From assembly GCF_025264665.1 (NCBI RefSeq), contig NZ_CP073697.1, forward strand, positions 1,798,001 to 1,862,000: DNA of 64,000 nucleotides, read 5' to 3'. The notes beneath the pieces are model-generated. The model saw nothing but the letters and a program-made list of their open reading frames with translations. It did not search any database and was not told the DNA's origin. The position numbers and the translations under genes are program-made. This stretch comes from Edaphobacter flagellatus (GTDB lineage Bacteria > Acidobacteriota > Terriglobia > Terriglobales > Acidobacteriaceae). Below are positions 8,058-36,818 of this stretch, in pieces (the first letter of the stretch is position 1; each line of letters opens with the position of its first letter).

Positions 8058-8069
8058 GCAAGCGCTTGC
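8058..8069. promoter_or_regulatory. LacI-type operator before the FucP-like permease
   Basis: A perfect 12-bp palindrome, GCAAGCGCTTGC, lies 58 bp upstream of the permease start codon and after the SDR stop. It is the same sequence found in front of the other island genes. Confidence 0.8.
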
Positions 8070-8140
8070 AATTTTCCCTGTAAAACAACGTAGTAATAAA
8101 ATCCCCGTACGATACTTACTATTGCTATGCAATGGCTAGG

Positions 8141-8926
8141 TTACTGAGCGGTCCAGGCTCCATCTATCGGCAGAGAAGCACCGGTGATATTTGCCGCGGC
8201 ATCAGAACAGAGGAATGCGGCCAGCGCTCCGACTTGCGCCGGAAGCACAAATTCTCCCGATGGCTGTTTGTCGCTCAACAGTCTTTGTTCTGCTGATTCG
8301 CGAGAAATATGTCCCTCTTCCATTCGTTGTAGGATTTGCGCTTCAACAAGCGGTGTGAGAACCCATCCTGGACAGATCGCGTTGCATGTCACGCCACTGC
8401 CTGCAGTTTCGAGGGCCGTCACCTTCGTCAGTCCGACCAAGCCGTGTTTAGCTGCCACATATGCCGCTTTATTGACTGAACCTACAAGGCCATGAACTGA
8501 GGCTATATTGATGATGCGTCCATAGCGTTTCCTACGCATCGATGGCAACAAGCTAGCGATGAGATGGAATGCAGCTGAGAGGTTCACCGCTAGAACTGCA
8601 TCCCATTGCTCTTTCGGGAATTGATCTACTGGCGCAACATGTTGAATGCCTGCGTTATTAATCAGAATGTCTATGCTCCCCAATTCCCTTTGCGCTTGTT
8701 CAGCCAGCATGCGACACTGCTCTCCAATCGAAAGATCAGCAGCGATGTGTATTACGTATACGCCATAATGTTCGTGCAATCTTTGCTTCAGAGCTTCGAT
8801 CTCAATGACCGTGCCAAAGCCGCTCAGTACGATATCGGCACCCTGTTTAGCGATCTCCTCGGCGATACTTAGGCCGATGCCGCTTGTCGCGCCAGTTATC
8901 AGAGCGCGTTTCCCTCCTAACACCAT
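8141..8926 (-). CDS. 3-hydroxybutyrate-dehydrogenase-like SDR
   Basis: The 261-residue protein is a short-chain dehydrogenase closely resembling D-3-hydroxybutyrate dehydrogenase: cofactor motif TGATSGIG (11-18), NNAGIQHVAPV, catalytic Ser143, Tyr156 and Lys160 in NIASVHGLV...YVAAKHG, and the C-terminal DGAWTAQ. Known relatives interconvert 3-hydroxybutyrate and acetoacetate with NAD. It follows the GH31 gene by 14 bp in an operator-controlled sugar cluster. A hydroxyacid or sugar substrate is thus as plausible as ketone-body metabolism. Family membership is firm; the substrate is inferred. Confidence 0.8.
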   Translation of the reverse strand: MVLGGKRALITGATSGIGLSIAEEIAKQGADIVLSGFGTVIEIEALKQRLHEHYGVYVIHIAADLSIGEQCRMLAEQAQRELGSIDILINNAGIQHVAPVDQFPKEQWDAVLAVNLSAAFHLIASLLPSMRRKRYGRIINIASVHGLVGSVNKAAYVAAKHGLVGLTKVTALETAGSGVTCNAICPGWVLTPLVEAQILQRMEEGHISRESAEQRLLSDKQPSGEFVLPAQVGALAAFLCSDAAANITGASLPIDGAWTAQ

Positions 8927-8940
8927 AGCTATATATCCAG

Positions 8941-11373
8941 TCAGTTCACTCTTATTTCAGTAGACTCGGGAATCGGAACAATTACGGTGATCACGGGCCC
9001 AAAGCGGTCCGTACTCTTGTCCCAGCAGAGACGGTTGGTTCCTTCTAGACATTCGGATGTCATTTTCAAGGCTTCGCCATTCGCTGACACTTGCCTTGCC
9101 TCGCCGCTATCAAGATGCAACTTCAACTCAAATGATCTGACAGAAGTCCGCATCAAACCAGTCGGATCATCCACTTTGATGTGGAAAGAGCTTCCGAATC
9201 GCGAAAAGTGGATCGCCTGTCGATAGAACTGCTCCTTTTCGTAGTCGTACGTTTTACCATCATCATCGTAGTAAACGAATGTGCTTTCTTTCTCCGCAGG
9301 GAAAAGATCAATTTGCACGCGATGCACCCGTGGTTCGTCCGTATTCTCGGCATCGTCTTGAGTCGCAACGGCGCCCCCTGCCTTGACGAATAGGGGAATA
9401 TCCGCCCATGTATCGCTATTGATGGAATAGTCAATCGTCCTGCCCCCTTCGTACGTCTGGCCACGGAAGTAGTCGTACCATGTCCCGGCAGGAAGATAGA
9501 CGCGTTGAGCCGTAGCCTTTGGAGACACAACTGGGGACACGAGTAGAGAATCACCAAACATCCACTCTGAAGAAAGATCTCGCGTATTGGCGTCGTCAGG
9601 ATACATCCAGAAGAGCGGACGCACAATGCCGATGCCAGTTTCGGTCATCTGTCGTTCGTTCGAATAAATGTATGGCAGCAAGCGATAGCGAAGACGGATC
9701 GCCTCGGTTGCAACGCGCTCCGCATGTTCACCATAAGCCCACGGCTGGCGCTTCGCATCACGGTCTCCATGAACGCGCATGATTGGCGTAAAGGTTGCAA
9801 ATTGAACCCAGCGAGCATAGTTTTCGGCGGACGCCTGACCGAAAAACCCACCTGTATCCATGCTCCAGAGCGGCTCACCAAGATTGATCGTCGAAAGCAT
9901 ACGTGCACGCTGGTTTGCCATATTGGCAAAGCCTGTGTGGATGTCACCTGACCATTCGGCATAGCCGAATCGTTGCGCCCCAAGGAAATAGTTCCGGTTC
10001 AAAGACCACACACGCTTGTTTGATACGGATCTCTGACCTTCGTACAACATGCGTCCCATGTTGAAGCCTTGCATGCTGCTGAAGTCCCACGTGGTACCGT
10101 CAGGCGCCAGGATATGATCGGCCTCATCGTTCCACCAGCCATCCATTCCAGCGTGAAACGACACCTCCAGATGGCGCCAATACCATTTGCGGACTTCAGG
10201 AATGCGGAAATCGAGGTCACGCGCATAGCGATGTACAGCACCATCGAAAGACTGTGGTTCACCCGGATACCAAAACTGATGAGCTTCTGCATACGCGGCA
10301 GCCTGACTGAGTTCCTGACCTCCTGTGGGCGAGCCTATCAGCACACGCGGCTTAAGGATTCCGGCGAGATGAACCCCTTGCGCCGCGAGGTCAAGTGCTA
10401 ACCGGCCACTTGCTCCATTGGGAAATTTGTTAGGAGCAATGGCTCCCGCCCCGCTGGTACTATTCCAGCGCCACTCACCGTATCCATCTTCACCCCAAGC
10501 CTTCCAGTCGTAATCAAGAATGAAGGCATCGATCGGAATGTGCTTTCTGCGATAGGTTTCCGCCTCGGTACGGAGTTCTGCTTCATCTGGTCCCCATTGG
10601 CTATTGATGAAGCCCAATGTCCATTTAGGTGGAAGCGGAGGGAGGCCAGTCAATCTTTCGATGGAAGACATGACAGCCATGGGTGGACCCACACAAATGA
10701 AGTCCTCCAGCACTTTACGCGACCCGTTACGGAATTGCACGACCCCATCCTCCGTATTGAAAGACCCTCCCGTTGAATCGATCAGGACACCGAACGAACG
10801 GGTGAAGAAAAAGGGGGCACCGCCGTCACCCTGCGCTCCAGCACGCACATCCGCACCAGCATTCCGGAGGATTGTGTTGCTGTTATCGCGAATATCGAGC
10901 CCGTTCATTCCGTATAGGTCTTCGAAAGGCGCATGGGAAAAAAGTGCCTGATGGGCAACTGCACTTTTGAGCGGGTTTCGTTGCCTTACGATTTCTCGTC
11001 CCGAGGGGTCGAGCACAATGACATCACGCTCGTTAAGCGATACAACTACATTGAATCTGTCGTTCTTAAGCACAACTTTTCCCGACTCGAAGGATATTGA
11101 CACCGCATCCTCAGATTTGCTCTCCCCGGCTCCTGCCAGAATATCTGTCGGCGTATCCGCAACACCCTTCGGGCGGGCAATGACATGGATGACAGTGCTC
11201 GAGGTCACACTCACACATAGGGAGCCTTCAGGGAACTCAATCGATATGCCTCCTGGGATGTTCTTAGAGGCTACACTTGGCGGCCTTGTCTGAGCCGTGG
11301 CTTCCAGAACCTGTGCGGTGCAGAGGAGCAACGCTAAGTGGAGCATTAGGGATCGTTTCGTCCAATCATTCAT
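8941..11373 (-). CDS. Secreted GH31 alpha-glycosidase
   Basis: The 810-residue protein has an N-terminal signal peptide (hydrophobic MLHLALLLCTAQVLEATAQ) and the GH31 architecture: an N-terminal beta-sandwich to about 240, a TIM barrel at about 250-600, and C-terminal beta domains with a YYDDDGKTYDYEKE segment. The nucleophile is probably Asp416 in GWWNDEAD and the acid/base Asp477 in EWSGDIHT, both standard GH31 positions. The family includes alpha-glucosidases, alpha-xylosidases and alpha-galactosidases, and the sequence alone does not choose. It heads the GH31-SDR-permease-SIS cluster and is divergent from a TonB receptor, with a LacI-type operator between them. Confidence 0.9.
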   Translation of the reverse strand: MNDWTKRSLMLHLALLLCTAQVLEATAQTRPPSVASKNIPGGISIEFPEGSLCVSVTSSTVIHVIARPKGVADTPTDILAGAGESKSEDAVSISFESGKVVLKNDRFNVVVSLNERDVIVLDPSGREIVRQRNPLKSAVAHQALFSHAPFEDLYGMNGLDIRDNSNTILRNAGADVRAGAQGDGGAPFFFTRSFGVLIDSTGGSFNTEDGVVQFRNGSRKVLEDFICVGPPMAVMSSIERLTGLPPLPPKWTLGFINSQWGPDEAELRTEAETYRRKHIPIDAFILDYDWKAWGEDGYGEWRWNSTSGAGAIAPNKFPNGASGRLALDLAAQGVHLAGILKPRVLIGSPTGGQELSQAAAYAEAHQFWYPGEPQSFDGAVHRYARDLDFRIPEVRKWYWRHLEVSFHAGMDGWWNDEADHILAPDGTTWDFSSMQGFNMGRMLYEGQRSVSNKRVWSLNRNYFLGAQRFGYAEWSGDIHTGFANMANQRARMLSTINLGEPLWSMDTGGFFGQASAENYARWVQFATFTPIMRVHGDRDAKRQPWAYGEHAERVATEAIRLRYRLLPYIYSNERQMTETGIGIVRPLFWMYPDDANTRDLSSEWMFGDSLLVSPVVSPKATAQRVYLPAGTWYDYFRGQTYEGGRTIDYSINSDTWADIPLFVKAGGAVATQDDAENTDEPRVHRVQIDLFPAEKESTFVYYDDDGKTYDYEKEQFYRQAIHFSRFGSSFHIKVDDPTGLMRTSVRSFELKLHLDSGEARQVSANGEALKMTSECLEGTNRLCWDKSTDRFGPVITVIVPIPESTEIRVN

Positions 11374-11498
11374 AAGCGGTGCTATTGCAGCAGTCTCCTA
11401 GTGTTGGCACCAGCGCTCGTACACCAGCGCCGGTACCGGCAGCTTCTGGCGACCATCACATCACATCAGAGTTCGCCGAGCCGGGATAACGATTTGAC

Positions 11499-11528
11499 TT
11501 GACAAAGATACCCGAGACACCAGAATAT
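11499..11528 (+). promoter_or_regulatory. Promoter of the first TonB receptor gene
   Basis: TTGACA at 11499-11504 is followed after 17-18 bp by an AGAATA/GAATAT -10-like box (11522-11528). A LacI-type operator begins two bases later, so a bound repressor would cover the start of transcription. Confidence 0.6.
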
Positions 11529-11529
11529 C

Positions 11530-11541
11530 GCAAGCGCTTGC
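11530..11541. promoter_or_regulatory. LacI-type operator, GH31 / TonB receptor divergence
   Basis: A perfect GCAAGCGCTTGC palindrome, 97 bp upstream of the TonB receptor start and 156 bp upstream of the GH31 start. It directly abuts the -10-like box of the plus-strand promoter. Confidence 0.85.
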
Positions 11542-11638: not shown

Positions 11639-14600
11639 TTGTACCGATTATTCCGAGCGCTAGTCTACGCACTTCTTCTCTCTTCCAATATCTATCTCAC
11701 GGCACAGGTGAGTACAGCTACGTTTCTGGGCACAATAACGGATGTTACCGGTGCGAGCGTGCCTAGGGCCACTATTACCATTACGCAAACTGACACGCAC
11801 GCAGTTCGCACGGTCATCAGTAAAGGAAATGGTTCATACCGCGCGGAGTTTCTTCCGATTGGCCCCTACTCCATCAGCGTTTCGTCGCCTTCGTTCCGAA
11901 CGCTAGTCCGCAGCGGACTTACTCTAAGCGTCGGACAAGAGGCCCAGGTGGATCTTACGTTGGAGGTTGGCACGGCGCAAGAAACCGTCGAAGTTACATC
12001 TGAAGCACCACTTCTGAACACGGCGAATGCAACTCTCGGACGAACGATTGACAATGTAGAGATTGACAATATGCCTCTAGTCGATCGAAATCCCTACGCC
12101 CTGCTCGATCTGATTCCCGGTGTCCAGGCAAACAATTCGATCACGACTACAGGCAACAACGGCCAGGGCACATCTGGCACGATGATCAATCCGCAGGGTT
12201 TCCCAGAACAGCATGTGAAGATCAACGGCTCCACTGACGGTGCAACAGGGCAGATCAGTTATTACCTCGATGGTGGATCGAACATGACCGGCTTGCGCAA
12301 TAGCGGAAACTCATTGCCAAATCCGGACGCTCTCAGCCAGTTCCGCGTAGATACCAATAATTTCTCCGCTCAATTTGGGCGCTCGTCTGGGGGTGTTGTT
12401 TCGGCACTTACCAAGTCAGGGACGAATAGTTTCCATGGGTCGGTGTTCGAGTTCTATCGCAGCCGTAACTTCAACGCCACACAACATCTCATCACAGTCA
12501 AAACGCCTTATAACCAGCACCGTTTCGGCTTTACTTTTGGTGGTCCGATAAAGCATAACAAGCTGTTCTTCTTTGGCTCCTACGCCGGATACCGTTTCGT
12601 CTCGTCAAAGAATCTGTTGACCTATGTGCCGAGTGCAGCCATGCAACGTGGCGACTTCAGCGAAAACTATCCATTAGGCGCGGGTGCGGCGAGCACGACC
12701 GCGCCTCCAGCAAATGCATGCTCACAGACAGCAAGCGCTGCATCTTTCTATGTTTGCGATCCAGTGACGAGGAAGACACCTCCTAGAGATCCCGTGACCG
12801 GGAAATACAATGTCGTCAATCCAGCAATAGCATTCGATCCCGCGATCTACGCAATGATCAAGGCAGGGTTAATCCCAACGCCCGCCCCTACTGCTCTTGA
12901 TACCAGTCCTTATGCACGACGTGACCTTTCGCCGTTCTCGCAGATGACCAACGAGCAGCTCTACAAGATGGACTATCAGATGACAACCAAGCAGCGGCTG
13001 ACATTGAGTTATTTCCATCAATATGGAAGCAATATTTTCGATGCCTCAGGTAATAACATCCTCAACTACTCGAAGCAGAACTTCACCTATAACCAGCACA
13101 ATGCAAACATCCAACATGTCTATGTGTTGAACAGCAACACCGTAAACCAGTTCGTCGTCTCTTTCAGCCGACTGTTCGGAGCACGTATCAACTCGCCGCA
13201 GGAGAGTCTTGCCGCATACGGCTCAAGCTATCGGCAACAGCTAACCAGCTCAACGTATTGCACAGGTACGGGCACGGGTTGCGCGCGGCCTCAATTCGCG
13301 GTTCAAACTTGGTTCACGGCGGGAGACGCCAGCGCCGGCCCTGCGGCAGGTGACAACATCTATCAAGTACGCGATCTTCTTAGCACCACTCACGGCCGCC
13401 ATACCCTCACCTATGGGGGCGAAGTCGCGCAGGAACGCGATTTCGGCAATGGAACTGGCAATAACTATGGCGTCTTCACATTCCAGCAAGCCAATAATAC
13501 GGTCGGCAGAAGCTCTGCTTCCATCACGGACTTCTTCTTCGGTCGGCCAGCGTCCATGGTGCAAAGCGTTCCGACCTACGGAACAGCCACCTATTGGAAT
13601 GTCGGTCTATATTTGCAAGACGACTGGCGCGCACTTCCAAATCTAACCTTCAATCTCGGGATTCGCTACGACATCCAGACAGGTGGACCCGATTCTGCAG
13701 GTCGTATGGTCGGCTTTATTCCAGGACAACAATCCACGGTTATTCCTTCTGCCCCGATCGGCGTTCTCTTCCGCGGCGACAAAGGAGTGTCGAACGGTGG
13801 CGCCTTCACCAAATACAACCATGTCTCTCCGCGGGTCGGTATGGTTTGGGACCCTTACAAAAACGGAAAGACTATCTTTCGTGCAGGTGGTGGAATCTTC
13901 TACGGAACAGTCTCCGGCAGTCTTTACACCGCAGCGTCGAGTTCTGCGCCGTATGGAGGTACTCTGACCTATACCAAAGTGACATCGGTTGCGAATCCAT
14001 ACAGTAACGATCCGTCGGAGTTTCCTGGGGGCGTTTCACCCTTCCCGTACTCTTTCTCAGCGAGCAATCCGACATTCAGCCTCCATCCACTACCGGTAAC
14101 CGCCTTTGATCCAAATTTCACCTGGCCAGCAATCTATCAGTTCAATGTTGGATGGCAGCAGCAACTCGGAAAGTCATTTGCTGTCACAGCGTCGTACGTG
14201 GGAGCTCTAAGCCGAAAGATACCGATGTATCAGGACATCAATGCTCCCATCTATACCCCAGGAGCACCATCCACAGCCCCTGCCGCCGGATCAGCTGCTT
14301 CGCTATCCGGGAAGAACTATCCAAATACAACAACTTACATTGCCAATCGCCGTCCCTTTAATTCGTCGGCATCATTGGGAGGAGGCCCTGGGCTTGCCGG
14401 CAACCCAACTTACGGAGCCGTCTATCGTATTCAGTCATCAGAGAGCGCAAACTATAACGGCCTACAGGTCACTGCGGAAGAGCGACTTTCGAAGAGGTTA
14501 ACGGTTCGCGGGTTTTATATATGGTCGAGGTCGATGCAAAGTCAGCCGTTAGATTCCACGGGGTCTCCTGCTGGCACCAGCCAGTATTACAACCCCGAAG

Positions 14601-15232
14601 ATCCTTACTTGAAATATCTGGATAGGCAGCGGTCGGACTATGACATACGCCACATGGCCACGATCTCCTTTGTTTATCAGTCAAACTTCCAAAGCAGCAA
14701 CTTTCTGCTGCGGCAGCTGGCTGACGGATGGACGGTTTCGGGAATTATCCGAGTGCAGAGCGGTATGCCCTTCTCGGTTCTCACTGGAAACGATGACAAT
14801 CAGGACGGTTTCCAAAATGACAGGCCAAATTTGAGCGGAATCGGGAAGCCTCATTTGACTGATACGGGCGGTTCGCGAACTGCTGCCATGAAGCAGTGGA
14901 TCAGCCCTTCCTATTTCTGCTTGTTCGTTCCTGCTACAAACACTTGCCCCGGCGCAGGCCCAGGCGGAATAGATGGAACAGTCCGCGCCAATGATTTTGA
15001 TGCACCTGGCCGTAGGTCAGTGGATGCATCCCTTTTTCGCGACTTTGCCTTCGAGGGGAATGTGAGGTTCCAGCTGCGCGCCGAGGCCACCAATGTCTTC
15101 AACCTGACGAACCTTCCCGGACCGACCGCGAATGTGAAATCACTGGCATCGTTCGGATCGATCCCAGGAACGATAACTGGCGGCAGCTTCGGAAATCGCG
15201 TTTTGCAGATTGGAGGCCGTGTTCTCTTCTAA
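11639..15232 (+). CDS. Oar-like TonB-dependent receptor
   Basis: A 1197-residue outer-membrane receptor. Residues 1-23 are a signal peptide ending in LTAQ. Residues about 25-105 form a carboxypeptidase-regulatory-like beta domain (ATFLGTITDVTGASVPRATI). The plug follows, with GRSSGGVVSALTKSGTNSFHGSVFEF, and the rest is a large beta-barrel ending in an aromatic-rich QIGGRVLF. The start is TTG at 11639, supported by an AGGAGG box six bases upstream. Acidobacteria use such SusC-like proteins without SusD for oligosaccharide or siderophore uptake. The operator and the divergent GH31 gene argue for a sugar ligand. A strong bidirectional terminator follows. Confidence 0.9.
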   Translation: MYRLFRALVYALLLSSNIYLTAQVSTATFLGTITDVTGASVPRATITITQTDTHAVRTVISKGNGSYRAEFLPIGPYSISVSSPSFRTLVRSGLTLSVGQEAQVDLTLEVGTAQETVEVTSEAPLLNTANATLGRTIDNVEIDNMPLVDRNPYALLDLIPGVQANNSITTTGNNGQGTSGTMINPQGFPEQHVKINGSTDGATGQISYYLDGGSNMTGLRNSGNSLPNPDALSQFRVDTNNFSAQFGRSSGGVVSALTKSGTNSFHGSVFEFYRSRNFNATQHLITVKTPYNQHRFGFTFGGPIKHNKLFFFGSYAGYRFVSSKNLLTYVPSAAMQRGDFSENYPLGAGAASTTAPPANACSQTASAASFYVCDPVTRKTPPRDPVTGKYNVVNPAIAFDPAIYAMIKAGLIPTPAPTALDTSPYARRDLSPFSQMTNEQLYKMDYQMTTKQRLTLSYFHQYGSNIFDASGNNILNYSKQNFTYNQHNANIQHVYVLNSNTVNQFVVSFSRLFGARINSPQESLAAYGSSYRQQLTSSTYCTGTGTGCARPQFAVQTWFTAGDASAGPAAGDNIYQVRDLLSTTHGRHTLTYGGEVAQERDFGNGTGNNYGVFTFQQANNTVGRSSASITDFFFGRPASMVQSVPTYGTATYWNVGLYLQDDWRALPNLTFNLGIRYDIQTGGPDSAGRMVGFIPGQQSTVIPSAPIGVLFRGDKGVSNGGAFTKYNHVSPRVGMVWDPYKNGKTIFRAGGGIFYGTVSGSLYTAASSSAPYGGTLTYTKVTSVANPYSNDPSEFPGGVSPFPYSFSASNPTFSLHPLPVTAFDPNFTWPAIYQFNVGWQQQLGKSFAVTASYVGALSRKIPMYQDINAPIYTPGAPSTAPAAGSAASLSGKNYPNTTTYIANRRPFNSSASLGGGPGLAGNPTYGAVYRIQSSESANYNGLQVTAEERLSKRLTVRGFYIWSRSMQSQPLDSTGSPAGTSQYYNPEDPYLKYLDRQRSDYDIRHMATISFVYQSNFQSSNFLLRQLADGWTVSGIIRVQSGMPFSVLTGNDDNQDGFQNDRPNLSGIGKPHLTDTGGSRTAAMKQWISPSYFCLFVPATNTCPGAGPGGIDGTVRANDFDAPGRRSVDASLFRDFAFEGNVRFQLRAEATNVFNLTNLPGPTANVKSLASFGSIPGTITGGSFGNRVLQIGGRVLF

Positions 15233-15320: not shown

Positions 15321-16235
15321 TTACAGGCTGAGACCATCTTCGGCCGGCCAGAGCCAGGCGGCTCCTCGCACGCCCGATGAATCTCCGTGTAAGGCTTGGA
15401 CGACAGGGGTATTTGCATTTTTACCAAAGACGGCGTCACGCAGGCGGCGCTCGATACCCGAGTAAATTCGCATAATGTTGGAAAGGCCTCCACCAAGAAC
15501 AATGACGTCTGGGTCCACGACGCCAATCACGACAGCGAGACCACGAGCTGCACGGTCTTCCAGCCGGTCCAACGCCGCAGCCGCTTGGGCATCTCCCAAC
15601 TCGGCCATTTGCGCAATCTCACGTCCAGACCGTTGGATACCTGTAGTTCCCAAAAAGTCATTTTCCAGCCCTGGGCCAGAGATCCATCCCTCGATGCACC
15701 CGTGCCGTCCGCAATAGCATTCGGCACCTGGAAACTCCCTTTGCGACATCCATGGGAGCGGCATATGTCCCCACTCACCAGCGAGTCCGTTCAGCCCTGC
15801 ATAACTGGAGCCTTTGATGGCAACGCCCCCGCCGCATCCTGTTCCCATGATGACTCCAAAGACGACGCCCGCACCACGAGCCGCTCCGTCGGTCGCTTCA
15901 CTCACTGCGAAGCAATTCGCGTCGTTCGCACAACGAACCTCGCGTCCGAGGGCATGACTCAAATCTCCCTCCAGTGGCTTGCCATTGAGCCACGTCGAGT
16001 TCGCATTCTTCACTAAACCACTTTCACGTACAATTGTTCCTGGGATGCCAACGCCTACGGTGCCCTCCACCCCTGTGTCGATCTCCAACTTCATCACAAG
16101 GTCTTTGATAGTGGAGATGGTATCTCTATAGGAGCCCTTGACAGTCGCTACGCGGAGCCGCGCGAGCACTGATCCATGAGCATCTAAGGCAATCGCCTCG
16201 GTCTTCGTGCCGCCAAGGTCAATTCCAATCCTCAT
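15321..16235 (-). CDS. ROK-family fructokinase, Mak-like
   Basis: The 304-residue kinase strongly resembles E. coli Mak. The phosphate-binding DLGGTK is at 6-11, NANSTWLNGKPL at 77-88, the catalytic Asp105 is in CANDANC, and the ROK zinc site comprises His157 and Cys173, Cys175 and Cys180 in GHMPLPWM...CYCGRHGC. Mak phosphorylates fructose and some other hexoses with ATP. Its start codon overlaps the stop of the upstream GH105-like gene by 4 bp, so the two are translationally coupled. It would feed a sugar released by the island's hydrolases into central metabolism. Confidence 0.85.
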   Translation of the reverse strand: MRIGIDLGGTKTEAIALDAHGSVLARLRVATVKGSYRDTISTIKDLVMKLEIDTGVEGTVGVGIPGTIVRESGLVKNANSTWLNGKPLEGDLSHALGREVRCANDANCFAVSEATDGAARGAGVVFGVIMGTGCGGGVAIKGSSYAGLNGLAGEWGHMPLPWMSQREFPGAECYCGRHGCIEGWISGPGLENDFLGTTGIQRSGREIAQMAELGDAQAAAALDRLEDRAARGLAVVIGVVDPDVIVLGGGLSNIMRIYSGIERRLRDAVFGKNANTPVVQALHGDSSGVRGAAWLWPAEDGLSL

Positions 16236-17505: not shown

Positions 17506-17517
17506 GCAAGCGCTTGC
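17506..17517. promoter_or_regulatory. LacI-type operator before the GH105 gene
   Basis: A perfect GCAAGCGCTTGC palindrome. On the minus strand it follows directly after a consensus TATAAT (17519-17524) and ends 14 bp before the ATG, so the transcript leader would be very short. Confidence 0.85.
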
Positions 17518-21107: not shown

Positions 21108-21133
21108 TCTCAAACTCAACTAAAGGGATATTT

Positions 21134-26842: not shown

Positions 26843-26853
26843 TTTCAATTATT

Positions 26854-28911: not shown

Positions 28912-28922
28912 ATCTTAAAGTG

Positions 28923-28934
28923 GCAAGCGCTTGC
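28923..28934. promoter_or_regulatory. LacI-type operator before the GDSL esterase
   Basis: A perfect GCAAGCGCTTGC. On the minus strand, TTGATA followed at 16-17 bp by TTTATT/TTATTG comes directly before it, and the ATG follows 11 bp after. Confidence 0.8.
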
Positions 28935-28979: not shown

Positions 28980-29978
28980 TTACTTAAGGGGGGCGCACGA
29001 AGATCGCTCCTTTAGGCTGACATCGAGCATACGATTCCCACCAGTAGCGGGTGGACCTCCAGCAATCTGCGAAAGGAGCAGTTCAACCGCAGATGCACCG
29101 ACTTCATAGCTTGGCTGATGAATCGTAGTTAGCGAGGGGTTCACGATGGCACCGACGGAGACATCGTCGAATCCGATCAAGGATACATCGCGTGGAATGC
29201 GGATGTTGACCTCTTCCGCGGCGCGAATCACGCCGAACGCCATCACGTCGTTTCCTGTCGAGATAGCTGTAAACTCGCGATCCTTGCTGAACAGATCCCG
29301 CGCCAGTTCATACCCTCCCGATTCCGTATGCTGGCCATGGAGCACCATAGGCGCCTTTAGGCGAGAGGCCTCATATTGATCAACGAAACCCCTGGCTCGA
29401 TCACGGAGATTGCTGTGGTTTTGCGGACCCGATAGGTGGATTACGCGCTTGTGTCCAAGCTCTATCAGGTATTTTGCTGCCAGTCGTCCACCTTTATAGT
29501 TGTCAACCGAAACAGTCGAGAGCTTTCGCAGTTTGGAACGGTTCAGGAGAACTATCGGAACTGTAATAGTGGACAGTCGCCGCATCTGCTCCGCCCCCAA
29601 AGGGGCGACGGAGTTCATAATGATCCCCTCCACCTGCTTTTCGAGAAGGGAGTCGATATAGCGAACCTGTTTTTCCGGATTCAGGTCTGTATTGCAAAGG
29701 ATCAGATCGAGACCGGCCCGATAGGCGGCGTCCTCCGCTCCGCGAGCAATATCGGCAAAAAAGGGATTCCGGATATCGCTGACGATCAATCCGAGAGATT
29801 TGGAATGCCCCGTTGCAAGAACCTGTGCAACCCGATTCGGTCGATATTCCAGCTTACGCGCGATCTCAAGAACCTTCGCCCGGGTTTTAGGATGCACACC
29901 GTAAGCACCACTCAAAGATCGCGAGGCGGTAGACAGATTTACACCAGCCTTGGCCGCAATATCACTCAAGGTAACCAT
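28980..29978 (-). CDS. LacI-family regulator 2
   Basis: A 332-residue LacI-family repressor from the ATG at 29978, which gives the canonical N terminus MVTLSDIAAKAGVNLSTASR; the open frame extends to 30080 with an atypical basic leader. The ligand-binding core has LGLIVSDIRNPFFADIARGA and LIGFDDVSVGAIVNPSLTT. It closely resembles LacI 1, including the SIDSLLEK-type segment, indicating gene duplication. It is divergent from the tannase gene, and an operator lies between them next to the tannase start. I infer that one or both LacI proteins bind the island operators; the inducing sugar cannot be read from the sequence. Confidence 0.88.
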   Translation of the reverse strand: MVTLSDIAAKAGVNLSTASRSLSGAYGVHPKTRAKVLEIARKLEYRPNRVAQVLATGHSKSLGLIVSDIRNPFFADIARGAEDAAYRAGLDLILCNTDLNPEKQVRYIDSLLEKQVEGIIMNSVAPLGAEQMRRLSTITVPIVLLNRSKLRKLSTVSVDNYKGGRLAAKYLIELGHKRVIHLSGPQNHSNLRDRARGFVDQYEASRLKAPMVLHGQHTESGGYELARDLFSKDREFTAISTGNDVMAFGVIRAAEEVNIRIPRDVSLIGFDDVSVGAIVNPSLTTIHQPSYEVGASAVELLLSQIAGGPPATGGNRMLDVSLKERSSCAPLK

Positions 29979-30134
29979 AAGCTCACAGCGTGAAGCAAAC
30001 ACCTTTCGTACACTTTGTTTACGCTCATACCTTATCACTCTTCGCAGACCGAATTGCCCGAGAGGCATTTTGGTAATCAAAAACTGAATAACAAAATATC
30101 TTGCTAGATTTCCAGAACTGTTCTACTCCATACT

Positions 30135-30146
30135 GGAAGCGCTTGC
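30135..30146. promoter_or_regulatory. Asymmetric LacI-type operator before the tannase
   Basis: GGAAGCGCTTGC, one mismatch from the palindrome, 22 bp before the tannase ATG and 156 bp from the LacI 2 start. It may serve the tannase gene, LacI autoregulation, or both. Confidence 0.75.
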
Positions 30147-30168: not shown

Positions 30169-31641
30169 ATGAACTTCAAAATTCTGACTGTAGTCTTTCT
30201 CTTCTCGCTTCCAGCTTTGGCACAGTCAAACTGCGCCAAAATGCAGCAGATCTCTATCCCACAAACTGACATTGTGCACGTCGAAGAAGTACCGTCTGGG
30301 AAGTTTGTGAATCCGGCTGGCACTCCCCTTGCCTCCATGCAAGCCTTTTGCCGTGTGCAGCTATCCGCACACCCAAGACCCGACGCGCACATTGGTATCG
30401 AAGTCTGGCTACCAATCGAAAGATGGAATGGACGCCTATTGGGCACGGGCAATGGCGGCTTCGGTGGACACATTCAATATTCGCAGCTTGCCAACGGAGT
30501 CCATACCGGGTATGCCACTGCCAACACGGATCTGGGCACGAACGAGAAACAACACTTCTTTTCTTCCTCAACTGAAGTCCTCGGGGATTGGGCATCACGC
30601 AGTACTCATCTGATGACCGTGGCCGCACAGGCGCTGATCACCGCATTTTATGGGCAATCCGCCAAGCACCGAACTTTCCTCGGCTGCTCCAGCGGTGGCC
30701 AGGAAGGCATCACTGAAGCTGAACAATATCCCAATGATTACGATGGTATCGTCTCCGGCGCTCCCGCGAACGATCGTGTTGACCTGCATATAGCTATTCT
30801 TTGGAACTGGCTCGCATTGCACCATGACGGCGTTCCCCTCCTTTCCCAACCCGAGCTCGAAAGTCTTTCTTCAGCTGCCGCTTCAGCCTGTTCTTCAGTA
30901 GACGGCGTTGTGACAGATCCTTCCACCTGCAAGTTCGATCCCGCAGTCCTTGCATGCAAACAGGGAGAGGAGAGTTCGCGTTGCTTGAGTGATACGCAGA
31001 TAGCTGCTGTCAAGCGCGTCTATTCAGGCCCGGTCACCAGCACAGGCAAACAAATCTTCCCCGGCCTTGCACCTGGGGGTGAAACCCAATGGGGATATTT
31101 TCTAAAACCATCAAGGAATGACCTTCATGTTCCTTATGAAGAGCTTTTCGTGCTCGGACTTGGCGAACACTGGTCTGGTGCGCACAACTTCAAGGTAGAT
31201 CAAGATACAGAGATGATGGAGTCGAAGCTTTCCTCGATTGTCGATGCCACGACAGCGAACCTCGATGCCTTTAAGGCTCACGGAGGCAAAATGATCGTGA
31301 TGCATGGATGGGAAGACCCGATAATCTCGCCCTTCAGCACAGTCCACTACTTCAACAAGATTCGCCAGAAATATGGCGCCGCAAGCGACACATTTACCCG
31401 TCTTTATCTCGTCCCCGGAGTCGCTCACTGTGGCGGAGGTCCCGGACCCGCGGCTTATGATTGGGCCAGCAACATCGTCGGCTGGGTTGAATCAAACAAA
31501 GCGCCGGAGGGCATCAGATTCGTGAACGGCAAAGGCCTAAAAGAAGCGCTTGCATGCCCCTATCCCAAGAAAGCTGTTTACAAGGGGACGGGAGCAGAGG
31601 ACGAAGCCGCAAATTACACTTGCGCGCCCCTGAAAAACTAA
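30169..31641 (+). CDS. Secreted tannase/feruloyl-esterase family protein
   Basis: The 490-residue protein has a signal peptide (ending LPALAQS) and the tannase fold. The nucleophile Ser174 lies in the G-C-S-S-G-G motif (172-177). The catalytic Asp is in HGWEDPIISPFSTVHYF and the His in VPGVAHCGGGPGP; Cys173 and the Cys after that His are placed for the characteristic disulfide. Family members release gallate, ferulate or similar aromatic acids from plant esters, although bacterial members are often uncharacterised. The operator ends 22 bp before the ATG, and I see no strong ribosome site. It would remove phenolic esters from pectin or xylan-type material. Confidence 0.85.
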   Translation: MNFKILTVVFLFSLPALAQSNCAKMQQISIPQTDIVHVEEVPSGKFVNPAGTPLASMQAFCRVQLSAHPRPDAHIGIEVWLPIERWNGRLLGTGNGGFGGHIQYSQLANGVHTGYATANTDLGTNEKQHFFSSSTEVLGDWASRSTHLMTVAAQALITAFYGQSAKHRTFLGCSSGGQEGITEAEQYPNDYDGIVSGAPANDRVDLHIAILWNWLALHHDGVPLLSQPELESLSSAAASACSSVDGVVTDPSTCKFDPAVLACKQGEESSRCLSDTQIAAVKRVYSGPVTSTGKQIFPGLAPGGETQWGYFLKPSRNDLHVPYEELFVLGLGEHWSGAHNFKVDQDTEMMESKLSSIVDATTANLDAFKAHGGKMIVMHGWEDPIISPFSTVHYFNKIRQKYGAASDTFTRLYLVPGVAHCGGGPGPAAYDWASNIVGWVESNKAPEGIRFVNGKGLKEALACPYPKKAVYKGTGAEDEAANYTCAPLKN

Positions 31642-32031: not shown

Positions 32032-32043
32032 GCAAGCGCTTGC
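32032..32043. promoter_or_regulatory. LacI-type operator before the multidomain SGNH gene
   Basis: A perfect GCAAGCGCTTGC palindrome immediately downstream of the -10-like box, 147 bp before the start codon. Confidence 0.85.
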
Positions 32044-32190: not shown

Positions 32191-34359
32191 ATGATGAATA
32201 CACTCTTCGTGATTCCAAATGCTCTCATGGCGGCGTTCGCCGGCCTCATACTCTTCTCACCCAATGCCCACGCGAAGGTAATCGCCTCGGATTCCTTTGA
32301 TTATGCGACCGGAACCCTTGTCAACACCGACAATGGTGGCACTGGTTTTAGCGCAGGATGGGTACCAGGCAGTACTGCCTATGGGGGTGGTTACACCATT
32401 GTAGTCGGGTCTCTCTCCGTTCCATCCAACTATAGCCTTGGCACATCGGACGGCAAATATCTTGCCTTGACGGCCGGAACAATAACGACCACAACAACGC
32501 GTAACCTCGCAAGCAGCATCGATACCAATGCTCCTGCTACCTATTATTTCAGTGCGCTGGTTTCGCTAACGAGTGGTCTAGCAACCGGAGATTCCCAGAT
32601 CAGATTTGTTGATGCCGCAGGATACGATGTGGCGGGCTTCGGTGCAAGCAGCGCAAGCGGTAAACTTCGTTTTAATAGTGCCTATGGTGGCATTGCCACC
32701 GTCACTGGAACAACTTCCAATGCATTTACTGTGGGAACCCAATATTTGCTCGTTGGGAAAATGACATTCAACGCGGCTGGTACGAATGATGTCTTCAGCT
32801 TCTCGCTTATTCCCTCATCAGGCGCTATTCCTTTGACCGAACCCACCACATGGGGTCTGACCGCCAATGGCGACTTGAGCAACATCATCACCGGAATTCA
32901 GATTTATACATCCGCAAACACAGGCACCTGGAATGTCGATAATTTTTATCTCGGAGACACATACTCCTCTGTCGTAGCGGAGTCCTCGTGGAGGCTGGCA
33001 CGTCTCGTCAATGTATCGTCCTTGGGAGATAGCCTCTCTGCTATGGGAAACACGGACACCTTGGGAACAGGCACTGTTGGTTATCCTCATAGTCGCACTC
33101 GCCTTACGAGGGGTTATCTGTCGTGGGTAGAGCTGAATCTCGGATGGAACTACAGGTCCATTCACAACTATGCGCTAGGCGGCTCAACGCTGCAGCAGCA
33201 GCTGGACTTTATCAGCAACCCAAACGATATTACGGCCGCTACTCAGGCCTGGGGCCCAATGAACACACTTAGTCCCCCTCCGGATTTGGTCTTTGCCGAG
33301 GGCGGAGGAGCTAACCTTGGAGGGAACACGGTTGCACAGATCGAGACCGCCAAGCAGGCAACCATTGACGCACTCCAGGCACTTTCACCCGATACGCATG
33401 TTCTTAGCCTCGCTATATGGCCACTTGGGAATTCGGCCGTTATATATGATGGCGACCGAAAAACGGTCAATGCCTGGATGGCTTCCAGTTACTCCTCCGG
33501 CCAGGTCCGCAACCTTGATTCCGACAGCCTTCTTGAAGATCCTGCGAACCCGGACCACATTCTTCCTGCGTATACCTCTGACGGCGTCCATACGACCGCG
33601 ATTGGAGCCAAGGCCGAAGGGGACTTTGTCGTCTCCCAACTCGCCGGATTGAATCTCCTCCCTGCTCCAATCATTTACCCTGAAACGCTTGATGCCGCTG
33701 ACGATCCGAGCAATCTTCTACGGGATTTCGGTTCAGACAATAGTCAACTGCAAAAATTGGGAGGCACAATTACGAATCTCGCCAATTTTGCGCCAGGATC
33801 TGTTTCTCCGTCCGGGTGGATGGCAACCGCCAACGCAGAATGGCAGACCTCGGCTGGGTCCTTGCCAACAATGTCTACTCTGGCCGAGGGGAACAATCTG
33901 AACGCCGTCTCGGTAACGATCCCGAATGGCATCGCACCATCGACAACAGCAAACACGGTGATTGGCCTTGGAACTACGGGAACTGGCATTTCTGCTGCAC
34001 GGGCCTCTGGCAAAGGAGTTGTCGGGGGATCCTCTTTCCGCGCCGGGGTCAGGATCGACGGAATCCAGATCCAGAACCTCATCTACATTTATCTCCTCAT
34101 CCGATATCAAATTGATGGGGTGAAGTACTCAGTCACTTCTGGCTTCCCTTATGCGAGCGGGAGTGCCGACGTGCTGCCCTCGGACTTTTCGGCTGATGTC
34201 CTCAGCCCCGAGTTCAGCTTTCCTCCATCAACCTCCACGGCGGTTATATCAGGCATGACAGTCTATTTAGGCTTTGTACCAGGCACGCCAGTTGGAGGAA
34301 CGGTAAGAATTTCACGTCCCTATATTCGGCCATATACCTATATTCCATCCTGGCCTTAA
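32191..34359 (+). CDS. Secreted multidomain SGNH hydrolase
   Basis: The 722-residue protein has a signal peptide (ending NAHAK). Residues about 30-260 form a beta-rich, Gly/Ser/Thr-rich module that is closely related to the C-terminal module of the lyase-like protein 4 kb downstream. An SGNH hydrolase domain follows at about 275-480: block I SSLGDSLSAMGN, block II GGSTLQQQ, and block V SDGVHTTAIGAKAEG with the catalytic His. A further beta-rich domain occupies 500-722. By analogy the flanking domains may bind polysaccharide while the SGNH domain removes acetyl or other ester groups; the ligand and substrate are unknown. Confidence 0.75.
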   Translation: MMNTLFVIPNALMAAFAGLILFSPNAHAKVIASDSFDYATGTLVNTDNGGTGFSAGWVPGSTAYGGGYTIVVGSLSVPSNYSLGTSDGKYLALTAGTITTTTTRNLASSIDTNAPATYYFSALVSLTSGLATGDSQIRFVDAAGYDVAGFGASSASGKLRFNSAYGGIATVTGTTSNAFTVGTQYLLVGKMTFNAAGTNDVFSFSLIPSSGAIPLTEPTTWGLTANGDLSNIITGIQIYTSANTGTWNVDNFYLGDTYSSVVAESSWRLARLVNVSSLGDSLSAMGNTDTLGTGTVGYPHSRTRLTRGYLSWVELNLGWNYRSIHNYALGGSTLQQQLDFISNPNDITAATQAWGPMNTLSPPPDLVFAEGGGANLGGNTVAQIETAKQATIDALQALSPDTHVLSLAIWPLGNSAVIYDGDRKTVNAWMASSYSSGQVRNLDSDSLLEDPANPDHILPAYTSDGVHTTAIGAKAEGDFVVSQLAGLNLLPAPIIYPETLDAADDPSNLLRDFGSDNSQLQKLGGTITNLANFAPGSVSPSGWMATANAEWQTSAGSLPTMSTLAEGNNLNAVSVTIPNGIAPSTTANTVIGLGTTGTGISAARASGKGVVGGSSFRAGVRIDGIQIQNLIYIYLLIRYQIDGVKYSVTSGFPYASGSADVLPSDFSADVLSPEFSFPPSTSTAVISGMTVYLGFVPGTPVGGTVRISRPYIRPYTYIPSWP

Positions 34360-34515: not shown

Positions 34516-36310
34516 CTAATTTGGAACTTGGCGAAGCAACCAGCGCACCATGTCAATTCCGCCACCGAGGTTGTCATACTCACGCGGTAACTTCCTGCCA
34601 TCTGTGTATTCGTTATAGAGCCATGGATCCGCGACAGCGAGGACAGTACCTTTTCCATACTTTGCGGTAGCGATGAGAACCTGGCCTTGATCTCGTAGCA
34701 ATGGAAGTGTCGATCCGCTCAAAGAGATTGTGCAGGTATCCTTAAAATAGAGAATGTGCGATCGGCGGAAGAATCTGGGATCGGCAGCCACGGAAAGCCT
34801 CCCCATCGGGAAGGTATCCCCTATCACGTGATGACTGAGTACGTTGTTGAAGTGGAGTCCAAAGCGATCCATCAAGAGGTTCAATCCTTCGATATCAGTA
34901 TTCGGTCCATCGTTTGCCATCACGATGAGCACCCCTCCCTGTTTCACCCAGAAAGTGATCTGTTCAGCATCCTTATCCTGTAGTGCGTTTGGATGGGGAT
35001 TCTTCAGCAACGTATCAGGCGAGACAATCATATAAAATTGCGCATCCTTTAGAGCCTCGATCGTAGGAGCGGTATTGAGCATTTCGGTCGAGACACCGTA
35101 CCTTCTAAAGATATTCCCGAAAAAGGAGTAGCCGAGATCACTCAGGTCGTCCCATTTGTAGTGAAACGGCTCCATCTGTCCTGCCGCGTTTTTCCTTTTC
35201 GCGCTGGTAAACCAACCATCAAGAAGAATCCTTTCTCCGCGGCCAAGCAAAGCGGTAGAAGCCATGTCCAACTCATCGGCAGCTAACAGAAATGCACCTA
35301 TCGGGCCGGACCTCTCATTACTTAGAGAGGTTGCCGAAGCAATGCGGTTATGGACACTCTTCCACGCTGCCGCTACTCGTCCGTCGTTTCGTGGCAAGTA
35401 TCCTAGCCTGGCACCCTTTGCTATGGCGTAAATCAGCATATAGTCGCCGACCAAGTCCAAGGAGCAGGGACGCACATCGATTTCGCACCAAAGGCCCGTC
35501 TTCTGGTCCTGGCGCTCATACAGAAAACTCGTCACACGGGAAAATGCTCTCGCAATAACCGCGCGATCTGGATCATCTCGCTGGTAATGAGGCAGCGTAT
35601 CCACGAGAGCCATCAGATACCAGCCCATGGACGCTATGGACGGGTTACAAGAATCTCCCGATCTATCACCGTCGCTGACGCCGCACTGGCGCCAGAGTTA
35701 GCCTCTTCCGAGATTTCATTTGCGTAAGCGGGTTCGTAATCGATGCAAACTTTTCAGACTGCTGAAAAACCGCCGCGTACTCAGCCAGGAAAGGTTTCGT
35801 CTCGTACAGCCTTCTCATCGCTGCCTTGTCCGCGCATCCGTTGCTATTGCGATCTGCCTCGCTTTCGTTGGATGCTCCCTCAGTAAGCTTATGTTCCAGC
35901 AGTGTTGCGGCACGATGGTACTTCTGCTCTCGGGTAACCCTGTAGAGAAGCAGTGCCTCTCTCCCCGGAGGAGTGTTACTTGACAGTTGATCGACAGTTG
36001 AGCAGCTACGCATCGTGCCATCAGGCTGAAGAAGTTGATCAACATTCCTCCTCACGTACTAGAAATAAGCTCGATTGGCAGTCTCGTACCAGAACGCACT
36101 TATGCCCGTCAGGAACATATTCGTATCGCTAGCCTGTGACATGCCGCAAGCATCAGGCCAGCGACTCATAGCCACATCTGCCAATTGCTCGGCTGACCCC
36201 ACCGTCTGTGTATAACCTACGTTTGGCGTTCCAAGCAGCAGTGCAACTGAAACCACGCTTGCGGCAACCTTACACGCTAGATGAGCATTGAATTCCCATC
36301 CTATGTTCAT
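34516..36310 (-). pseudogene. Broken GH105-like hydrolase with C-terminal domain
   Basis: Read on the minus strand, this is a GH88/GH105-type gene with a signal peptide (36310 onward, ending VGYTQ), then QLADVAMSRWPD and FWYETANRAYF. A TAG at 36059-36061 interrupts it. The same frame then continues with RRNVDQLLQPDGTMRS and PPGREALLLYRVTREQKYHRA until it shifts frame near 35700. The third part resumes with SMGWYLMALVDTLPH and continues into a C-terminal domain resembling a glutamine-amidotransferase-like fold (FWVKQGGVLIVMANDGPNTD). One nonsense codon, at least one frameshift and missing core residues make it non-functional as a full enzyme, although the last 370-codon frame is still open. 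Confidence 0.8.
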
Positions 36311-36357: not shown

Positions 36358-36612
36358 TCAGCGGCTGATTGCGGCATTCATGATAGGGCCGTTGATGGCG
36401 GCAGCAAGCCCAACTGTCGCGATCTTCCCCATCTGCACTGCAATGCCTGAGGCAAGACCTCCATTCTGCATCCCCACCTCTATTGAAATCGTCCGGCAGT
36501 TATCTTCCGGTAACCTGCAAAGCTTGGCCCCGAGATATCCCAGAAGACAACCACAGGTCATATGCAGAAACATCGCGAACACTAGGATCAAACGCTTGAT
36601 GTTTTTCAACTC
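36358..36612 (-). pseudogene. Remnant of a BASS-family sodium symporter
   Basis: A short frame of about 80 codons encodes only the C-terminal part of a bile-acid:sodium-symporter (BASS) family transporter: a hydrophobic helix, GYLGAKLCRLPEDNCRTISI and EVGMQNGGLASGIAVQMGK, then GPIMN near the end. Normal members are about 300 residues with ten helices, so roughly the first three quarters are gone. The remnant begins directly after an intact operator and promoter, which implies a deletion that joined the regulatory region to the 3' end of the gene. The frame extends upstream to 36663 only by running through the -35 box. Confidence 0.65.
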
Positions 36613-36620
36613 TGAATTTG

Positions 36621-36632
36621 GCAAGCGCTTGC
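36621..36632. promoter_or_regulatory. LacI-type operator before the decayed locus
   Basis: A perfect GCAAGCGCTTGC palindrome in front of the transporter remnant and GH105 pseudogene. It is unmutated although both genes it served are broken. Confidence 0.85.
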
Positions 36633-36634
36633 TA

Positions 36635-36663
36635 TATTGCTCTACGGATACCATTATTGTCAA
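36635..36663 (-). promoter_or_regulatory. Promoter of the decayed locus
   Basis: On the minus strand TTGACA (36658-36663) is followed after 17 bp by GCAATA (or CAATAT at 18 bp) and then the operator, matching the layout of the other island promoters. Confidence 0.55.
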
Positions 36664-36776
36664 GACAATGTTCCGGGGTCTCGATACGCGGTACAGGCTC
36701 GGGTATAAGAGATAATCTGATTTTTGTTATTTATGGAGGCAATCTATCGTAGAAATGCCCCTTGGAAATTCGGGGC

Positions 36777-36805
36777 TTGACAAAACTAAATAGGCCATGA
36801 ATTAT
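36777..36805 (+). promoter_or_regulatory. Promoter of the heparinase-II-like gene
   Basis: TTGACA (36777-36782), a 17-bp spacer and AATTAT (36800-36805), with the operator starting two bases later. Confidence 0.65.
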
Positions 36806-36806
36806 T

Positions 36807-36818
36807 GCAAGCGCTTGT
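36807..36818. promoter_or_regulatory. LacI-type operator before the lyase-like gene
   Basis: GCAAGCGCTTGT, one mismatch from the palindrome, at the same distance from the -10-like box as in the 11.5 and 32.0 kb promoters. Confidence 0.75.

What the first reader, a model, noticed from the sequence alone, without database searches (positions are those of the whole stretch)
8058..36818. Ten-site LacI-type operator regulon over a polysaccharide island
The 12-mer GCAAGCGCTTGC or a one-base variant occurs in front of genes at 8058, 11530, 17506, 17626, 26854, 28923, 30135, 32032, 36621 and 36807. Each copy lies in an intergenic region beside a sugar-active gene. Two closely similar LacI repressors lie in the middle. 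The dispersed genes (GH31, GH105, GH92, esterases, lyase, two permeases, ROK kinase, TonB receptor) thus look like one coordinated pathway for a complex uronic-acid or mannose-containing glycan.
Basis: partly seen in the sequence, partly recalled or inferred. Interest (0 to 1): 0.75.

Follow-up and report, generated by a model that had tools for sequence, protein, structure and literature searches.

The report
LacI regulon over a glycan-degrading island
In an acidobacterium, ten copies of one short DNA palindrome sit at or near the starts of the genes of a sugar-polymer-digesting island, most likely as binding sites of two related LacI-type repressors encoded in the same island; it is a real and unusually clean switch, but of a well-known general kind.

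Summary
Confirmed. All ten sites are at the stated places. In the 4.45 Mb genome the exact 12-mer occurs six times, all six here. Six of the ten sites directly follow a near-consensus -35/-10 pair, so a bound repressor would cover the transcription start. The sites can be assigned to the local LacI proteins: their subfamily in other Acidobacteriota carries the same kind of palindrome (GCAARCGYTTGC, up to 1 mismatch) upstream of its own lacI genes in 20 of 29 loci, against 0 of 51 more distant lacI loci, with the same promoter layout. The conserved target is a TonB receptor/LacI/GHL6-GH42M enzyme/MFS/SDR module. Here the control covers about ten transcription units, including a lyase-like enzyme, GH88/GH105, GH92, esterases, a fucose-type permease and a ROK kinase. 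One unit (site 36621) now drives only gene relics. The glycan and the inducer are not settled. The kind is known (local LacI regulon, perhaps with isorepressors); this regulon did not appear in the seven literature searches made.

The parts
8058..8069 (.). Operator 1 (exact), 58 bp upstream of the FucP-like MFS start taken here (7999); promoter score 7 of 12
11530..11541 (.). Operator 2 (exact), 3 bases after the -10 of the TonB receptor promoter (TTGACA-16-CAGAAT); also 156 bp upstream of GH31
17506..17517 (.). Operator 3 (exact), one base after TATAAT of the GH105-ROK promoter (minus strand)
17626..17637 (.). Operator 4 (1 mismatch), 37 bp upstream of the GHL6-GH42M start taken here (17675); promoter score only 5 of 12
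26854..26865 (.). Operator 5 (1 mismatch), 5 bp upstream of SDR2, with the 23383 gene behind it (minus strand); promoter score only 6 of 12
28923..28934 (.). Operator 6 (exact), 11 bp upstream of GDSL esterase 1 and, same strand, LacI-1
30135..30146 (.). Operator 7 (1 mismatch), between divergent LacI-2 (54 bp) and tannase-family (22 bp) genes; promoter score 7 of 12
32032..32043 (.). Operator 8 (exact), TTGACA-18-CATATT directly before it; 147 bp upstream of GDSL esterase 2
36621..36632 (.). Operator 9 (exact), with TTGACA-18-CAATAT on the minus strand, now in front of relics
36807..36818 (.). Operator 10 (1 mismatch), TTGACA-17-AATTAT directly before it; 44 bp upstream of the lyase gene
26921..28015 (-). 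LacI-1 repressor (recognition helix STASRSL); groups with the LacI of a GHL6-MFS-SDR module (L070)
28980..30080 (-). LacI-2 repressor, 50-51% identical to LacI-1, recognition helix STASRSL
6659..7999 (-). L-fucose:H+ symporter-type permease (FucP; the ORF reaches 8071)
   Evidence: TIGR00885, 352.4 bits, cut-off 280.4
8141..8926 (-). SDR dehydrogenase 1; over the NCBIfam cut-off for 3-hydroxybutyrate dehydrogenase
8941..11373 (-). GH31 glycosidase
11639..15232 (+). TonB-type outer-membrane receptor (CarboxypepD_reg + OMP_b-brl_4)
15321..16235 (-). ROK sugar kinase; best NCBIfam model fructokinase (414.5 bits, cut-off 443), nearest solved relatives N-acetylglucosamine kinases
16232..17491 (-). 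GH88/GH105 unsaturated-uronyl-hydrolase-type enzyme (PF07470); best solved match 4ce7
17675..19855 (+). GHL6 + GH42M enzyme with a Tat-like N-terminus; conserved neighbour of this LacI subfamily
19866..21107 (+). MFS permease, nearest model D-galactonate transporter (below cut-off)
21104..23380 (+). GH92 alpha-mannosidase-type enzyme
23383..25995 (-). Large protein of no known family (12 hits, its own entry included)
26066..26848 (-). SDR dehydrogenase 2, related to the SDR of the LacI-GHL6-MFS-SDR module
28078..28911 (-). GDSL esterase 1
30169..31641 (+). Tannase/feruloyl-esterase-family protein
32191..34359 (+). GDSL esterase 2 with an N-terminal domain (32275-32973) shared with the lyase
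34516..36310 (-). Relic: GH88-DUF4350 piece (34516-35628) preceded by two open pieces (35666-36055, 36059-36310) that match no family and are taken, by place and strand, as its broken front part
36358..36663 (-). Relic: C-terminal fragment of a BASS/PanS-type transporter (profile 216-275 of 299)
36863..40039 (+). DUF4962/heparinase II-III-like lyase (or epimerase) + Fn3 + C-terminal domain (39332-40036) shared with GDSL2

Best explanation
The ten palindromes are operators of the LacI-family repressors encoded at 26921-30080. Without inducer, a repressor dimer sits on the palindrome, which in six of ten units directly follows a near-consensus -35/-10 pair and so would cover the transcription start and block initiation (position shown; binding inferred). 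A sugar or sugar acid from the degraded glycan binds the repressor and frees about ten transcription units together: receptor, enzymes, permeases, kinase, and the repressors themselves. The two LacIs act as isorepressors on one operator set, like GalR/GalS in E. coli (recalled), because their recognition helices agree in STASRSL and most residues at the expected ligand-pocket positions match (inferred). The system grew from a smaller conserved acidobacterial module (TonB receptor, LacI, GHL6-GH42M enzyme, MFS, SDR). The substrate is most likely an acylated heteropolysaccharide with uronate-type and alpha-mannose units and perhaps L-fucose (inferred, low confidence, about 0.3).
For: Exclusive clustering: 6 of 6 exact sites and 10 of 11 16-mer sites of the genome. 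All ten intergenic under my starts. Promoter placement: scores 7,10,10,5,6,9,7,10,9,10 of 12, sum 83 against 54.8 +- 3.9, 0 of 20,000 random draws; 59 on the opposite strand. TTGACA 23-26 bases before the exact 12-mer: 3 found, 0 in 100 shuffles. Assignment to the LacIs: 20 of 29 subfamily lacI loci have the palindrome (up to 1 mismatch) in a 380-base stretch around and upstream of the start, 26 sites in 11,020 bases against 13 in 373,890 elsewhere in the same loci; 0 of 51 distant lacI loci. Same promoter layout at 23 such sites, mean 9.2 against 5.8 +- 0.2, 0 of 200. Only the two island LacIs among nine carry STASRSL. Module conservation. LacI-1 groups with the LacI of such a module (L070) at 99/97.
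Against: No binding or expression data. Four units fit the promoter model less well (7, 5, 6 and 7 at sites 8058, 17626, 26854, 30135). Nine of 29 subfamily lacI loci lack an upstream match within one mismatch, among them L069 and L070, which share TASRSL (L070 has three 2-mismatch sites upstream of its receptor, LacI and GHL6 genes, but four more elsewhere in its 12.5 kb). Most relatives carry GCAAACGTTTGC, not GCAAGCGCTTGC. L082 has TASRSL with GCAAACGTTTGC. It is not shown that both LacIs, rather than one, bind. Starts of two genes were my choice. L059/L060 and L073/L074 are near-duplicates, so the 20 of 29 are fewer independent cases. SDR1 and the ROK kinase may not act on the glycan sugars proposed.
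Confidence: 0.88

Rival explanations
1. Only one of the two LacIs controls these operators; the other has drifted to another target or is left from a merged island.
For: The tree does not make the two sister proteins: LacI-1 groups with L070, LacI-2 is placed apart on a long branch in an open fork. LacI-2 has a changed hinge (VAQVLATG against MARGLATG).
Against: Both recognition helices hold STASRSL, and both genes lie in the island beside operators. A second palindrome family was not searched for.
Confidence: 0.3
2. The sites belong to a global CcpA-like catabolite regulator rather than to the local LacIs.
For: The centre AAGCGCTT resembles CcpA cre sites (recalled), and the nearest solved relatives of LacI-2 are CcpA proteins.
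Against: A global regulator would have sites genome-wide; outside the island the counts are near control. The other seven LacI-family matches have different recognition helices.
Confidence: 0.04
3. The palindromes are something other than operators, such as a mobile repeat or a transcription-terminator hairpin.
For: One copy scores as a terminator-like stem.
Against: Position behind -35/-10 pairs at six of ten sites, and a matching element with the same layout in front of relatives' lacI genes.
Confidence: 0.02
4. The regulon is real, but it is a merger of two or more sugar pathways under one switch, not one glycan pathway.
For: The conserved module (GHL6, MFS, SDR, TonB) occurs in 29 relatives' loci (3.5-21 kb each) without a match to the lyase, GH92 or GH105; the lyase was found in 1 of 398 family genomes at E <= 1e-40; FucP, GH31 and SDR1 need not share a substrate with GH92/GH105.
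Against: All are under one operator type, and GDSL2 and the lyase share a 67% identical domain, which suggests one substrate for these two.
Confidence: 0.4

Closest known systems
Local LacI-family sugar regulons (Ravcheev et al. 2014, PMC4052901; 12 passages read)
   Same: Even palindrome with central CG, autoregulation (72% of the regulators there), carbohydrate genes
   Different: That survey covers 7 phyla and the word Acidobacteria does not occur in its main text. There more than 75% of sites lie 140-30 bp upstream of the start; here 4 of the 9 sites with a live gene do (58, 97, 37, 44), four are closer (14, 5, 11, 22) and one is at 147
GalR/GalS isorepressors of E. coli (recalled; listings only)
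   Same: Two paralogous LacI-family repressors expected to share operators
   Different: Here both genes lie inside the island they control; different operator; shared binding and ligand not shown
CcpA and its cre sites (cre recalled; solved relatives)
   Same: Palindrome core AAGCGCTT; LacI fold
   Different: No genome-wide distribution, so not a global regulator
Bacteroidota polysaccharide utilization loci (recalled)
   Same: Outer-membrane TonB receptor, lyase/GH/esterase set, coordinated control
   Different: No SusD-type family among the 19 island ORFs scanned; receptor is of the CarboxypepD_reg/OMP_b-brl_4 type; control by LacI repressors
Oligoalginate lyase (3afl) / dermatan-sulfate epimerase (6hzn) fold group
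   Same: Residues 66-613 of the lyase align to both (E about 1e-8)
   Different: Remote similarity; substrate unknown; carries Fn3 and a domain without family match

Membership tests
LacI-family transcription factor | LacI HTH plus periplasmic-binding-protein-like ligand domain | tested here: met
   PF00356 and PF13377/PF00532 over cut-off in both proteins
LacI-family transcription factor | Even palindromic operator with central CG | tested here: met
   GC/GG-AAG-CG-CTT in all ten sites; rule from PMC4052901 passages
Local LacI regulon | Sites confined to a few units and to the regulator's own gene | tested here: met
   10 of 11 16-mer sites in 28.8 kb; a site lies upstream of GDSL1-LacI-1 and another between LacI-2 and the tannase gene
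Local LacI regulon | Protein binds the sites and releases them with an inducer | not testable with these tools
   needs purified protein
Isorepressor pair (GalR/GalS type) | Near-identical DNA-reading residues | tested here: met
   STASRSL in both; neighbouring residues differ (VTI/VNL before it, NH/SG after it)
Isorepressor pair (GalR/GalS type) | Both bind the same operators and similar inducers | not testable with these tools
   residues at the expected pocket positions are largely shared (positions recalled from LacI), suggestive only
Bacteroidota PUL | SusC/SusD pair | tested here: not met
   no SusD family hit in the 19 island ORFs scanned
Polysaccharide lyase of the oligoalginate-lyase fold group | Sequence similarity over the catalytic domains | tested here: met
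   3afl 68-613, 6hzn 66-611, E about 1e-8
Polysaccharide lyase of the oligoalginate-lyase fold group | Conserved catalytic residues | not tested
   alignments printed; no residue-by-residue check against the known catalytic residues was made

The most novel reading that the evidence does not exclude
Two LacI paralogs with one reading head occupy the same ten promoters and together act as an AND gate: transcription starts only when both are released, each by a different breakdown product of a so far undescribed fucose-, mannose- and uronate-containing glycan. That glycan is attacked by a new lyase/esterase pair sharing an unrecognised binding domain, by a GHL6-GH42M enzyme of unknown activity, and with help from an orphan protein family (23383-25995).
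Probability: 0.15. Interest if true: 0.65.

Novelty: new member of a known kind. Interest (0 to 1): 0.42.

Why it matters
Acidobacteriota are abundant soil bacteria (abstract of PMC5259719) and gene control in them is little known (my judgement). This gives a motif, two regulators and a list of co-controlled genes that can be tested directly, and a regulator-operator pair traceable through relatives. It also places several uncharacterised proteins (the GHL6-GH42M enzyme, the 23383-25995 protein, the domain shared by GDSL2 and the lyase) in a glycan-degrading regulon, which suggests what to assay them on.

Tried and rejected
Global CcpA-like control: rejected because sites outside the island are near control level. 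Site 62946 (one mismatch) and the seven two-mismatch window sites: not counted as operators; 31542 (AGAAGCGCTTGC) lies inside the tannase-family gene. The genomic 16-mer hit at 1008808: inside an 801-aa ORF. Base composition as a sign of recent transfer: island 52.6% GC and a sample of 21 loci elsewhere in the genome 57.1%, whole window 53.0%; not decisive, because the flanks in the window are also low. A strict code linking recognition-helix residues to the centre of the operator: relatives do not follow it. Structure predictions for the 23383-25995 protein (pLDDT 35) and for the domain shared by GDSL2 and the lyase (pLDDT 46) were too poor, so no fold search was run. A homologous full island: GHL6 was found in 4 of 398 family genomes, own included (E <= 1e-60), the lyase in 1 of 398 (E <= 1e-40). 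In the stretches fetched, G163 holds GHL6 and MFS, G330 holds LacI, GHL6, MFS and SDR2 with a TonB fragment, G238 holds GHL6 alone on a 7,150-base contig; none had the operator at up to 1 mismatch beside these genes. The three protein searches scored only the roughly 8,000 candidates sharing most words, so absence of relatives there is not proof. The scan for LacI relatives kept the best 80 of 306.

Literature: seven searches. The 12-mer as a string was found in one paper, on CcpA in group A Streptococcus (listing only). No paper on this regulon appeared in the listings. PMC4052901: 12 passages read. PMC5259719: abstract, start of the introduction and outline read. Other papers: listings only.


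Full report
The observation. All ten are present: six exact and four with one mismatch. A genome search shows how special they are. The genome (one contig, 4,445,627 bases) holds six exact copies, all in this island. At up to one mismatch there are 33 sites (24 for the reversed control pattern); 11 of them are in the window and the 22 outside are about the control number. At three mismatches 27 more sites appear (one of them again 62946), against 17 control sites at up to three mismatches. If positions were random, the chance that all six exact copies fall in one 28.8 kb stretch is about 1e-11; that stretch was chosen after seeing the sites, so the figure is only indicative. In 150 genomes of the family the exact 12-mer occurs in 82; the largest count is six, here and in one genome (G051) where the copies lie on five contigs.

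That it is an acidobacterium follows from relatives: contigs G029:C47 and G330:C117, of genomes given as same order and same family, have the lengths (89,644 and 32,326) of named Acidobacteria MAG contigs found with the same LacI.

Gene starts. In two cases the longest ORF runs over a site: the FucP-like gene (ORF to 8071) and the GHL6 gene (ORF from 17594). I took the starts as 7999 and 17675. For GHL6 this fits the Tat-like start MNRRDMLK and relatives whose similarity begins at the second residue of the shorter form. For FucP the family match begins only at residue 54 of the long form, so the start is a choice. Site 36621 overlaps a 101-aa ORF with a TTG start that is a relic. With these starts all ten sites are intergenic, in a stretch that is 92% coding.

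Position in promoters. Oriented towards their genes, several sites follow a near-consensus -35/-10 pair within three bases: TonB TTGACA-16-CAGAAT, GH105 CTCACA-18-TATAAT, GDSL1 TTGATA-16-TTTATT, GDSL2 TTGACA-18-CATATT, lyase TTGACA-17-AATTAT, and the relic unit TTGACA-18-CAATAT. Scored at that fixed place, six of ten sites reach 9 or 10 of 12; the others have 7, 5, 6 and 7. The sum is 83, against 54.8 +- 3.9 for random intergenic positions of the same island; none of 20,000 draws reached it, and the opposite strand scored 59. A repressor on such a site would cover the region just after the -10 and the start point. The two close pairs (17506/17626 and 36621/36807) lie between divergent genes, one site for each direction; for 17626 the promoter is weak.

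Which protein binds. The genome has nine LacI HTH matches; only the two in the island carry the recognition helix STASRSL. They are 50-51% identical to each other; the five other own-genome LacIs in the printed list are 30-32% identical to LacI-2. A scan of the species-genome collection found 306 stretches encoding a relative and kept the best 80 loci, of which 29 (L057-L085) form a close group at 46-56% identity: Acidobacteriota plus two Opitutaceae MAGs. In 20 of the 29 the palindrome GCAARCGYTTGC (up to one mismatch) lies in a 380-base stretch that ends 30 bases past the expected lacI start: 26 sites in 11,020 bases, against 13 in 373,890 bases elsewhere in those loci. In the other 51, more distant lacI loci the count is 0 of 51. 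I gave 19 of the 29 loci to a promoter test; 18 yielded 23 upstream sites, with the same -35/-10 placement in the better of the two directions (mean 9.2 against 5.8 +- 0.2 for random places scored the same way, 0 of 200 draws). In L066, L071 and L080 one site suits lacI and another the divergent TonB gene. Against this, nine of the 29 loci lack such a site, L059/L060 and L073/L074 are near-duplicates, and most relatives have a different centre (ACGT instead of GCGC).

What the regulator originally controls. I compared 23 window proteins with the 29 loci at E <= 1e-20. The MFS was found in 12 (10 of them at 55% identity or more), the GHL6-GH42M enzyme in 9 (8 at 46% or more, one of these partial) and SDR2 in 5; TonB receptors were found in about half (15 for one query, 14 for the other). 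In the 51 distant loci MFS and GHL6 were found in none, and SDR2 in 5. In L070 the order is LacI, GHL6, MFS, SDR2, with a TonB fragment upstream in the same contig, and its LacI groups with LacI-1 at 99/97. None of the lyase, GH92, GH105, GH31, ROK or esterase proteins was found in the 29 loci; these are only 3.5 to 21 kb long. I read this as a small ancestral module whose control was extended, in this genome, to a larger glycan-degrading set. The two LacIs are not each other's sisters in the tree, although several branches there are long or open.

The island's chemistry. HMM and structure-sequence matches give: an L-fucose symporter-type permease over its curated cut-off; a GH88/GH105 protein with best solved match 4ce7, an unsaturated 3S-rhamnoglycuronyl hydrolase; GH92, matched to alpha-1,2-mannosidases; GH31, best solved match an alpha-glucosidase; a ROK kinase just below the fructokinase cut-off, whose nearest solved relatives include N-acetylglucosamine kinases; SDR1, over the cut-off for 3-hydroxybutyrate dehydrogenase; two GDSL esterases and a tannase-family protein; and a lyase-like protein with remote similarity to oligoalginate lyase and dermatan-sulfate epimerase. 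GDSL2 and the lyase share a domain of about 233 residues, 67% identical, without a family match. The 23383-25995 protein has 12 hits, its own entry included, in a search that scored 7,996 candidates from about 5.8 billion sequences; five of its longer relatives also match no Pfam family. A working guess is an acylated uronate- and alpha-mannose-containing heteropolysaccharide, perhaps with L-fucose: lyase first, then GH105 and GH92, mannose to the ROK kinase (E. coli has a related manno/fructokinase, recalled), and fucose and uronate through the two permeases. This is inference from family names, and SDR1 and the ROK matches do not speak for it. [quoted passage not shown]

A dead unit. Site 36621 has a good promoter on the minus strand but drives a C-terminal fragment of a BASS/PanS-type transporter, followed by pieces taken as a broken GH88-DUF4350 gene: the last piece matches GH88 (DUF4350 just under cut-off), the two front pieces match no family and are assigned by place and strand. 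The operator thus marks a former member of the regulon.

Verdict. The regulon is real as a sequence pattern and can be assigned to the local LacI subfamily with high confidence; binding is untested. It is a local, perhaps isorepressor-controlled LacI regulon, a known kind. What is new, as far as the searches here show, is its presence in this phylum with a traceable operator, its size, and the uncharacterised proteins it groups together. In the LacI regulon survey read in passages, Acidobacteria is not mentioned in the main text.

Noticed in passing
window 32275-32973 and 39332-40036: A domain of about 233 residues without Pfam match is 67% identical between GDSL esterase 2 and the lyase; a third copy (P0136, 63%) is in a metagenome protein with Fn3. 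Possibly a new carbohydrate-binding module.
   Followed up: partly
window 23383-25995: 870-residue predicted protein with no Pfam or NCBIfam match and only 12 hits, own entry included, in the protein search; predicted fold of low confidence.
   Followed up: partly
window 34516-36663: Decayed genes under a well-preserved operator and promoter: GH88-DUF4350 pieces and a BASS/PanS transporter fragment.
   Followed up: yes
window 41003-50905: A neighbouring set with NHL-repeat protein, CehA/McbA-type metallohydrolase, carbon-nitrogen hydrolase, GH2 and a second OMP_b-brl_4 TonB receptor, without the operator at up to one mismatch.
   Followed up: no
L065, L067, L070, L076, L078, L080: LacI - GHL6/GH42M - MFS gene order in other Acidobacteriota, with SDR2 as the next gene in five of the six; the GHL6-GH42M family has at least 406 members at E <= 1e-30 among 7,998 scored candidates.
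   Followed up: partly
window 40515-40961: Cyanate lyase (cyanase) gene directly downstream of the island, on the opposite strand.
   Followed up: no
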